A stretch of DNA of 64,000 nucleotides from positions 1 to 64,000 of the forward strand of contig NZ_CANMDB010000006.1 in the NCBI RefSeq assembly GCF_947496515.1. Reading direction: 5' to 3'. The notes beneath the pieces are model-generated. The model saw nothing but the letters and a program-made list of their open reading frames with translations, did not search any database and was not told where the DNA came from. Both the position numbers and the translations under genes were made by a program. Of this stretch, positions 23,165 to 26,100 are shown piece by piece. Source of the DNA: an uncultured Roseobacter sp. GTDB taxonomy: Bacteria > Pseudomonadota > Alphaproteobacteria > Rhodobacterales > Rhodobacteraceae. Within the stretch, counting starts at the first letter, position 1, and each line of letters starts with the position of its first letter.

Positions 23165-26100
23165 CTACCCCAGTTCGGCAAGGCGGGCGAGCGCATCCCT
23201 GAGTTTGGCTTCTTCTTCTTCGCGCAGGGCGAGGTTGGCGCGGGTTTCCTCGACCACTTCTGCGGGGGCTGACGCGGCGAATTTGGGGTTTTTCAGCCGG
23301 CCACGCAAGCCGCCGAGCTCTTTTTCGAGCTTGCCAAGTGTCTTTTCAAGACGTGCTTTTTCCTCTGCGATATCAATGACATCAGCGAGTGGGAGCCCGA
23401 AGGTGCCGCCGGTGACGGCGAGGGTGACGGTGCCTTTGGGGAAGTCTTCCACATGGCTGAGATCTTCGACGCGTGCGAGACGCTTGATCATGGTCTCGTT
23501 CCGTTCCCAGGCGGATTGGCCTGCGGCGTCGAGATCGGTCACCGTCAGCGGCACGTAGGCGCCCGCGGGCACGTGCATCTGCGCGCGGGCGGAGCGGATC
23601 GCCTCGATCAGCGAAATCACCCAGTTCATCTCCTGATCTGCGGCGGCGTCCACCAGATCGGCGACGGTGTAGCTGGGCCATTCTGTGAGGGCTAACATCT
23701 TGGATCTGTTGCCTGTTTCTGACCAGAGCTCCTCGGTGATGAAGGGCATGACCGGGTGCAGCAGCACCATGCACTGATCGAGCACCCAGGCCATGGTGGC
23801 CCGCGTCTCCGCCGCAAGATGGGCGTTGGCCTCATCCTGCAGCAGCGGCTTGGACAGCTCCACGTACCAGTCGCAGACCTTGCCCCAGACAAAGGCGTAG
23901 GCAGCGTTTGCGGCGTCGTTGAAGCGGTAGGTGGAGAGCGCCGCGTCGATCTCTTCGCGGACCTTGGCGGTCTCTCCGATGATCCATTTATTCACTGTCT
24001 GTGTGACGTCGGTATCGGGTCGGTATTGCGTCGGTATCACGTCGGTGCGTGGCGCGCGGTGGGTAAAGACGTCGTTCATCTCCGCAAAGCGGCAGGCGTT
24101 CCACAATTTGGTGCCGAAGTTGCGGTACCCGGCGATCCGCTGTGTGGAGAGTTTCAAGTCGCGCCCCATGGCGGCCATTGCCGTGAGTGTGAAGCGCACT
24201 GCATCGGCGCCGTATGCGTCGATCATGTCGAGCGGGTCGAGCACATTGCCGAGCGACTTCGACATCTTCTTGCCCCGCTCGTCGCGGACGAGCGCGTGAA
24301 CATAGACGGTGTCAAAGGGCTTCTGGCCCACGACGGCATATTGCATCATCATCATCCGCGCGACCCAGAAGAAGATGATGTCAAAGCCGGTGATCAGCGT
24401 GGAGGTCGGGAAGTATTTTTGGAGGGCTGCGTTGGCCGCGTCCTGTTCAGCGTCGCCGGTCCAGCCCAGCGTGCCAATGGGCCAGAGGCCGGAGGAGAAC
24501 CAGGTATCGAGGACGTCGGGGTCTCGGCGAAGAAGGGCGACAGGGACCCCTAGTTCTCTAAAGTCTTTGATTTTCTCGGACTGAGCAACGGGCTTGCTCA
24601 TCACAGAAAGGCCTTTTGGAACGTCCATGCCCGCCGCCAACAAAGCTCGATTTACGGAGTCCGAGTGCCGATCAACGTCAGAAAACTCTTCATCTATTAA
24701 AATGAGCGTGCCTTTCGGGTAAGTTTCAGTTGCCAGCCTGTAGGCATCATCCTTGGTTGCGGCGCAGAACATCTCGTCTTCTCCGGCACGAATAGTTCCG
24801 TCTGGTAGGATTTTCGGACCGAACCAAACCGGGATCTGATGCCCCCACCAGAGCTGGCGGGAGATGCACCAGGGCTCGATGTTTTCCAGCCAGTTGAAGT
24901 AGACCTTTTTATCCTGCTCGGGGTGGATGGTGACATCGCCCGAACGAACCGCATCAATCGCGGGCTGGACGATCTTGGCGGTTTCGACGAACCATTGGTC
25001 GGTCAGCATCGGCTCGATAACCACCTTTGAGCGGTCGCCGAAGGGCTGCATGATCTTTTTGGCCTCGACCAAGGGCACCATGGCATCCCCGGCTTGACCG
25101 GGGATCTCGTCGGTTGGTGTGGGCGCGTCGGGGGTGTGAGATCCTCGGGTCGAGCCCGAGGATGACGGTGGGGGGGTGTCGGGAGATCCTCGGGTCGAGC
25201 CCGAGTATGACGCAGAGGCAGACGAGGAGGGCGCAGAGGCGGGCGTGGAGGGCGCAGAGGCAGACGTGGAGGGCGCGGAGGTAGGCGCGGAGGGCGCGGA
25301 GGCGGGTGAGGAGGGCGTTGTCGCCTCAGGCGTGTCCGGCTCGGCGGGGATCATCACGGCGAGGCCTTCCTCGGTGATCTGGGCCACGACCTGTTCGCGC
25401 GCCTGCGGGCCGCTGTCCTCGCCTTTGACGAAAAAGCGGTTGAGGCCCCGCAAGTCGTCCGGGACGAGGTTGATTGCGTCGGCTTCGGCCTCCGAGAGGG
25501 TCCGGTTGCCCTTGGCCACGTCCATGGCGATGGCGGCGGCTTCGGCGTAGGGCGCGCCGTCACTGCGCATGTGTCCGCTGGTGTCCAGCAGGCGGTACAT
25601 GGGGATGCCCGCGCGTTTGGCGACAGCGTAGTCGTTGAAGTCATGTGCGCCGGTGATCTTGACCGCACCGGAGCCGAAGTCGGGGTCCGGATACTCATCG
25701 GTGATGATCGGGATCAGGCGGCGGTGTTCCTTGGGTCCCACGGGGATTTCGCAGAGCTGGCCCACGATGGGGGCGTAGCGCGCGTCCGACGGGTGGACGG
25801 CGACCGCGCCATCGCCCAGCATCGTTTCGGGCCGGGTGGTGGCGATGGAGATATAGTCGCGGGTCTCGCGCAGGGTCTCTTTGCCGTCTTCGTCCTTTTC
25901 GACGTATTCATAGGTCGCCCCGCCCGCCAGCGGATATTTGAAGTGCCACATATGGCCGTCGACTTCGATGTTCTCGACTTCGAGATCGGAGATGGCCGTC
26001 TCGAAATGGGGGTCCCAGTTGACCAGGCGCTTGCCGCGGTAGATGAGGCCATCGTTGTACATCTGCACAAAGACCTTGATGACCGCATCGTGGAAGTTGG

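What the first reader, a model, noticed from the sequence alone, without database searches (positions are those of the whole stretch)
25080..25350. Palindromic elements and a 21-bp minisatellite inserted in frame into valS
Three hairpin-forming repeats (two of them 28-bp near-identical copies) and five 21-bp units add about 90 Ala/Pro/Ser/Thr residues to an essential synthetase, between the editing domain and the catalytic core. This parallels Rickettsia palindromic elements, which spread inside protein genes in frame. The repeat number can change without breaking the frame, so ValS length may differ between strains.
Basis: partly seen in the sequence, partly recalled or inferred. Interest (0 to 1): 0.7.

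Follow-up and report, generated by a model that had tools for sequence, protein, structure and literature searches.

The report
Palindromic repeats inside an essential synthetase
A marine bacterium's essential valine-tRNA synthetase carries short palindromic repeats of a known, mobile-looking kind, added in frame at a linker where related bacteria seem to have gained and lost similar repeats many times; the process is known, the recurrent site I did not find described.

Summary
valS (23165-26584, minus strand) of a Roseobacter-group genome carries three hairpin repeats and a 5.1-copy 21-bp minisatellite, in frame, between editing domain and catalytic core. Its linker is 100 aa against 25-29 aa in 17 of 18 genus relatives and 53 aa in one, a net gain of 71-75 aa, not about 90. 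The hairpins fit CGTC-tagged REPs, the superfamily that includes Rickettsia RPE-4 and RPE-6 and is known inside genes (PMC3733652). Twelve copies of one type lie in the genome; by inspection only the two in valS are genic. IleS carries a related one in frame; 18 relatives do not. Across sampled Rhodobacteraceae-type ValS the same linker carries such peptides in 36 of 186 rows, with at least 21 changes on the tree; hairpins are about 31 times denser there than in the rest of valS. In ten chosen carriers the linker's type fits the type dispersed in the host (p 0.008). Part of the pattern may be one old insertion. A known kind, at a recurrent site. Separately, a neighbouring ValS segment (24527-24820) is strikingly hypervariable.

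The parts
23165..26584 (-). valS, valyl-tRNA synthetase, 1139 aa
   Evidence: ORF; Pfam tRNA-synt_1, Anticodon_1, Val_tRNA-synt_C; PDB 1GAX E 5.4e-165
25055..25354 (-). expanded linker, 100 aa (25-29 aa in 17 of 18 genus relatives, 53 aa in G003); modelled without secondary structure at residues 418-498, in a model of low overall confidence
25083..25108 (-). palindrome C, stem 8 bp, loop 5, encodes EIPGQAGD; degenerate CGTC tag
25138..25167 (-). CGTC-REP of type A, stem 9 bp, loop 5, encodes SSSGSTRGS; with palindrome C it forms a head-to-head heterodimer
25183..25212 (-). second direct copy of type A (one stem mismatch), encodes SYSGSTRGS, 45 bp from the first
25211..25317 (-). 21-bp minisatellite, 5.1 copies, 7-aa unit of SAPSTPA type
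24527..24820 (-). neighbouring hypervariable ValS segment (98 aa), low GC; separate from the repeats

Best explanation
The insert is a head-to-head heterodimer of CGTC-tagged REP elements (palindrome C at 25083-25108 and A at 25138-25167) that entered, in frame, an exposed linker between the editing domain and the catalytic core of ValS. It was then enlarged locally by a 45-bp tandem copy of element A and by slippage of a 21-bp unit. Copies that break frame or disturb folding are purged because ValS is essential, so only multiples of three at tolerant places survive. The ValS linker is such a place across Rhodobacteraceae: several lineages received palindromes of the family present in their own genome, and repeats there are gained, duplicated, decayed and lost. 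Shown here: anatomy, frame, dispersed copies, absence in most genus relatives, recurrence, fit of type to host. Inferred: transposition itself, order of events, exposure of the linker and neutrality for the enzyme.
For: Anatomy and frame. Dispersed A copies in G000: 12 at up to 3 mismatches, control 0. Ten are outside valS and lie, by ORF and Pfam inspection, between genes or before the likely start of a gene. 17 of 18 genus relatives lack the insert; G003 has one A, one C and no minisatellite. IleS of G000 has a REP-type hairpin in frame before WTTTPWT, none of 18 relatives has a hairpin there. Hairpins: 23 in 9,345 bp of linker against 21 in 266,229 bp of the rest of valS, 87 of 95 loci parsed, p 1.6e-22; by eye 19 of the 23, in 11 loci, and none of the 21 are of REP type. 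Repeat peptides in 36 of 186 ValS rows, at least 21 changes on a tree built without the linker. Fit to host in 10 chosen carriers: linkers of type A in 7 genomes, 7 of 7 with A copies elsewhere; linkers of type B (GTCCCGG) in 3 genomes, 0 of 3 with A copies and 3 of 3 with B copies elsewhere (Fisher p 0.008). Several frames and both strands of the element are used: SSSGLTRGS, VIAGLDPAT, DPRVx[13 protein letters not shown].
Against: No transposase candidate of the RAYT kind: PF01797 has 0 matches in G000 (4 of 19 genus genomes have some). No polymorphism within a species was seen. Palindrome C is hardly dispersed: at up to 1 mismatch it occurs in 3 of 198 family genomes, two of them in valS, so the A-C pair may be an old insertion that moves with valS. 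All 14 rows in which my patterns find A and C have A before C, in the same frames, with a spacer of 3 or 10 aa, which fits one origin and later loss. The tree is a FastTree with weak support at many carrier nodes; the samples are capped and biased (best 120 of 7997 scored proteins, ranked on a region that includes the linker; best 80 of 590 loci). The ten host genomes were picked by me as carriers and are related; B copies also occur in several type A hosts (G020 147), and G021's single outside A copy has 3 mismatches. Disorder of the linker is not shown: conserved core stretches such as 512-535 and 557-584 also have pLDDT under 50 in the same model.
Confidence: 0.78

Rival explanations
1. One ancient REP heterodimer insertion in the ValS linker, inherited or exchanged with valS by recombination and lost in most lines; the apparent recurrence is loss and transfer. 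(Not fully exclusive with the best explanation: it may hold for the A-C class.)
For: All 14 A-C rows found by my patterns (P0001 and L022 are one protein, P0103-P0105 near-identical) share order and frames, spacer 3 or 10 aa. C is nearly confined to valS: 2 of 3 places in 198 genomes. G000 and G003 share the 10-aa spacer and the upstream GPQARE-type residues although they are not sisters on the tree, where support is weak.
Against: Other carriers have different elements and frames. Type B linkers were seen only where the host has B and no A (3 of 3). An A-C dimer also exists outside valS in G019, C2:295265-295327.
Confidence: 0.3
2. The palindromes are kept because mRNA hairpins at the domain boundary slow ribosomes or shape folding of ValS; the protein sequence matters little.
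For: RNA fold z -3.23. Palindrome C occurs in valS as GG..CC and GA..TC variants, both amino-acid changing and both keeping the stem. The site is a domain boundary.
Against: 150 of 186 ValS rows have no such repeat peptide. Decayed stems exist (L067). The two variants can equally be two subfamilies of the element.
Confidence: 0.07
3. Low-complexity drift: an Ala/Pro/Ser/Thr-rich linker that became palindromic by chance or by codon bias.
For: The minisatellite part is low-complexity and has no second place in the genome.
Against: Near-identical palindrome copies elsewhere in the genome; 23 hairpins against 0.9 on average and 3 at most in 100 codon shuffles.
Confidence: 0.03

Closest known systems
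CGTC-tagged REP elements (Di Nocera et al. 2013, PMC3733652; outline, sections 14 and 15 whole, and passages; figures and supplements not seen)
   Same: CGTC at one end, stem of 8-9 bp that starts with AT, loop of 4-5, head-to-head dimers, no dedicated transposase, mostly intergenic; REPs (the sentence does not part GTAG from CGTC) inside genes, among them tRNA synthetases of X. oryzae, E. litoralis and S. alaskensis
   Different: Roseobacter and Rhodobacter have 0 occurrences in the main text; a shared insertion site is reported there for recB of two Xanthomonas species; the tail here is CTC, not CCA; the head-to-tail copy and the minisatellite are unusual. Its Additional file 3, which lists target genes, was not available, so ValS may be listed there
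Rickettsia palindromic elements RPE-4 and RPE-6 (as cited in PMC3733652; the original papers are recalled, not read)
   Same: short palindromes in frame in protein genes; PMC3733652 places RPE-4 and RPE-6 in the CGTC superfamily
   Different: another order of bacteria; few genic copies in this genome; one linker hit in many genera
REPIN/RAYT systems of GTAG-tagged REPs (PMC3116915, seen in a search listing only)
   Same: inverted pairs of short palindromes dispersed in the genome
   Different: GTAG tag and a RAYT transposase; here the tag is CGTC and G000 has no PF01797 match

Membership tests
CGTC-tagged REP | CGTC (or TGTC, CCTC) tag at one end | tested here: met
   CGTC at both A copies; degenerate at palindrome C of this genome, CGTC at that of L123 and TGTC at that of G080
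CGTC-tagged REP | stem of 8-9 bp, AT at first and second position, loop of 4-5 | tested here: met
   ATCCTCGGG-CTCGA-CCCGAGGAT (9, 5) and ATCCCCGG-TCAAG-CCGGGGAT (8, 5); one mismatch in the copy at 25183-25212
CGTC-tagged REP | unpaired tail, mostly CCA | tested here: not met
   tail here is CTC; the paper says most, not all, so this does not exclude membership
CGTC-tagged REP | head-to-head dimers predominate | tested here: met
   25083-25108 with 25138-25167, tags outward; also C1:468514/468555 and C9:216711/216751. The copy at 25183-25212 is head-to-tail, a type the paper calls negligible
CGTC-tagged REP | multi-copy and dispersed, without a dedicated transposase | tested here: met
   12 copies of type A; no PF01797 match in G000, other transposases not tested
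Rickettsia palindromic element | in-frame insertion into protein genes | tested here: met
   valS and ileS
Rickettsia palindromic element | sequence relation to a named RPE family | not tested
   no RPE sequence was fetched; the link rests on the superfamily statement in PMC3733652
GTAG REP / REPIN with RAYT | GTAG tag and a RAYT gene | tested here: not met
   CGTC tag; PF01797 has 0 matches in G000

The most novel reading that the evidence does not exclude
ValS of the Roseobacter group is a diversifying protein: the REP-fed linker and the neighbouring hypervariable segment (median pairwise identity 21% against 92-93% in its flanks) together keep changing its surface, perhaps because a phage, toxin or other agent recognises ValS, with REP hairpins as a mutational motor at one of the two sites.
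Probability: 0.1. Interest if true: 0.75.

Novelty: new member of a known kind. Interest (0 to 1): 0.45.

Why it matters
Intragenic REPs are mostly known as scattered single cases. A linker of one essential enzyme that is hit in many genera, in the tested cases by the element type present in that host, is a natural experiment: it would show how often such elements jump, in which frames they are tolerated, and whether mobile palindromes feed new protein segments. It can be tested with more genomes and with a dispensability test of the linker.

Tried and rejected
A chance or codon-bias origin of the palindromes was rejected by shuffles. A RAYT-driven system was rejected for this genome. Rfam gave 0 matches in the window at gathering thresholds. 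A looser 22-base pattern gave 16 places in G000 and 0-10 in the 18 relatives, but its reversed control also hit 3 times (2 in G008, 1 in G013), so I count with the longer pattern. A local identity peak between G000 and G003 around the linker was looked for and not found (that script stopped with an error after printing the identities, and its last part was redone). A 365-aa ORF across three dispersed copies on C1 has no Pfam family and looks spurious. A one-mismatch match on C3 (L175) falls in what looks by eye like hslU and I treat it as chance similarity. The AF2 model has 40 sequences, mean pLDDT 68.9 and pTM 0.58; it is too weak to prove disorder, and I did not search folds with it. I had thought that L124 carries a loop found elsewhere in its own host; the exact loop is not in the list, so I dropped that point. 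Literature searches for REPs in Roseobacter and for a hypervariable ValS gave nothing relevant in their listings. Rows dropped: before the tree, 20 ValS sequences whose anchors did not match and 7 with identical last 500 residues (P0001 and L022, one protein, both remained); 12 of 99 loci not parsed; 8 of 95; 2 of 95.

Full report
WHAT IS THERE. The ORF 23165-26584 on the minus strand (1139 aa) is valyl-tRNA synthetase (Pfam; best PDB match 1GAX, E 5.4e-165). Inside valS lie a palindrome at 25083-25108, two direct 30-bp palindromic copies at 25138-25167 and 25183-25212, and a 21-bp array of 5.1 copies at 25211-25317. All are read in frame: [26 protein letters not shown] and a Ser/Ala/Pro/Thr-rich stretch. 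Against 1GAX the insert falls between chain residues 309 and 350, after the editing domain and before the core resumes (domain names recalled).

HOW MUCH IS ADDED. The linker has 100 aa here, 53 aa in G003 and 25-29 aa in the other 17 genus relatives, so 71-75 aa are gained, not about 90. G003 has one SSGLTRGS, one DIPGQAGDA and no minisatellite. An AF2 model gives residues 418-498 a pLDDT near 30 and no secondary structure, but some conserved core stretches are also under 50 in it (40 sequences, mean pLDDT 68.9), so disorder is likely from the composition rather than shown.

WHAT KIND OF ELEMENT. On the gene strand the A copy is CGTC-ATCCTCGGG-CTCGA-CCCGAGGAT-CTC. PMC3733652 (outline, sections 14 and 15, passages) describes CGTC-tagged REPs, most in alphaproteobacteria, with stems of 8-9 bp that start with AT, loops of 4-5, head-to-head dimers predominant, heterodimers common in two families, no dedicated transposase, and REPs inside genes, tRNA synthetases among them; it states that RPE-4 and RPE-6 of Rickettsia conorii are CGTC-4 and CGTC-1. 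Palindrome C (25083-25108) and A (25138-25167) form such a head-to-head heterodimer. The tail (CTC, not CCA) is the one feature not met. G000 has no PF01797 match; 4 of 19 genus genomes have some.

DISPERSED COPIES. With the A pattern at up to 3 mismatches G000 has 12 copies, G003 3, and the reversed control 0 in all ten genomes searched. Two of the 12 are in valS. The other ten lie, by inspection of ORFs and Pfam without a gene caller, between genes or in the stretch before a likely start codon: near genes of glycerol-kinase, IclR, ribosomal S7, phosphoglycerate-dehydrogenase, Mur-ligase and RACo type, and between two ABC-transporter genes. Of the related B type, one sits in frame in ileS (G000:C2:151510): IleS of G000 has this hairpin and a second, imperfect one (peptide ETPGQARGG) before WTTTPWT, and the 18 relatives have no hairpin there. 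Another B pair seems to encode the C-terminal tail of an ABC-type ATPase (G000:C1:210523).

RECURRENCE. In 87 of 95 loci, hairpins with arms of at least 8 and loops of 3-5 number 23 in 9,345 bp of linker and 21 in 266,229 bp of the rest of valS (about 31-fold, p 1.6e-22, loci not independent); 100 codon shuffles of the linkers give 0.9 on average, 3 at most. By eye 19 of the 23, in 11 loci, are of REP type and none of the 21. With a stricter limit (arm 9, loop 3-6) the numbers are 6 and 4. In a tree of 186 ValS rows built without linker and hypervariable segment, 36 carry repeat-type peptides by my patterns, and presence/absence needs at least 21 changes; midpoint rooting gives 22 pure carrier clades, several with weak support. 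The samples are capped and biased, so 36 of 186 is not a population frequency. In ten carriers that I chose, linkers of type A occur in 7 genomes, all with A copies outside valS (10, 2, 27, 32, 1, 38, 22), and linkers of type B in 3 genomes with no A copies and with 4, 27 and 11 B copies outside (minus those in valS by position, for G026 by sequence since its places were not all listed; Fisher p 0.008). G021's one outside copy has 3 mismatches, one of G022's four is poor, and B copies also occur in several type A hosts, so the contrast rests on the absence of A in the type B hosts. It is what insertion from each host's own pool predicts.

WHAT SPEAKS FOR AN OLD INSERTION. Palindrome C at up to 1 mismatch is found in 3 of 198 family genomes: in valS here, in valS of G080, and in G090 just behind an ORF, not in valS. 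The 14 rows where my patterns find A and C (P0001 and L022 are one protein, P0103-P0105 nearly so) all have A before C with a spacer of 3 or 10 aa. G000 and G003 share the 10-aa spacer and similar residues upstream but are not sisters on a weakly supported tree. So the A-C class may be one old or transferred insertion with later loss. Yet an A-C dimer also lies outside valS in G019. All 6 rows with two or more A peptides have them exactly 15 aa apart, a 45-bp unit.

TANDEM EXPANSION. The minisatellite has no second place in the genome. Similar expansions appear in the same linker elsewhere: P0016 has a 7-aa unit [ST]GQAGDD six times and P0082 an 8-aa unit of PGQARG type three times (protein level only). 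Whether copy number varies within the species could not be tested.

MECHANISM. Most likely a REP pair entered a tolerant linker, local duplication and slippage enlarged it, and purifying selection on an essential enzyme kept only in-frame versions. Shown: anatomy, frame, dispersed copies, recurrence, fit to host in ten genomes. Inferred: transposition itself, order of events, neutrality.

THE NEIGHBOURING SEGMENT. Between WWGHQIPVW and [11 protein letters not shown] (24527-24820) the 19 genus genomes have median pairwise identity 21% (171 pairs, best 87%), while the 65 residues before and the 120 after have 92% and 93%; lengths run from 56 to 122 aa, and GC3 is 0.52 here against 0.81 in the rest of the gene without the linker. 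GC3 is below that of the flanks in 87 of 93 loci, and some Rhodobacteraceae have a minimal 27-aa version. The model gives it helices and strands of mixed confidence (block means 46-83). IleS of the same genomes has one internal low-identity stretch, residues 261-320. This is a separate matter and may deserve its own study.

VERDICT. The kind is known. The recurrent ValS site with host-fitting elements I did not find described in the searches, which cover open-licence PubMed Central papers only; the gene list in a supplement of PMC3733652 was not available.

Noticed in passing
24527-24820 (valS residues 589-686): Hypervariable ValS segment: median pairwise identity 21% among 19 genus genomes against 92-93% in both flanks, low GC3, length 56-122 aa.
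   Followed up: partly
L151 (G000:C2:150300-154000): IleS of the same genome has an in-frame REP-type hairpin and a second imperfect one before WTTTPWT; none of the 18 genus relatives has a hairpin there.
   Followed up: yes
L173 around 1523 (G000:C1:210523): A related palindrome pair seems to encode the C-terminal tail of an ABC-type ATPase.
   Followed up: partly
24007-24046: An 11-bp tandem repeat (3.6 copies) in another part of valS, a period that is not a multiple of three.
   Followed up: no
P0016 (ValS of an unnamed source): Same linker with a 7-aa unit [ST]GQAGDD six times, a parallel tandem expansion.
   Followed up: partly
G020, contig C22, about 58-61 kb (genome of L074): Runs of the same palindromes 48 bp apart.
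   Followed up: no
G003 genome: Ten Y1_Tnp (PF01797) matches, while G000 has none.
   Followed up: no
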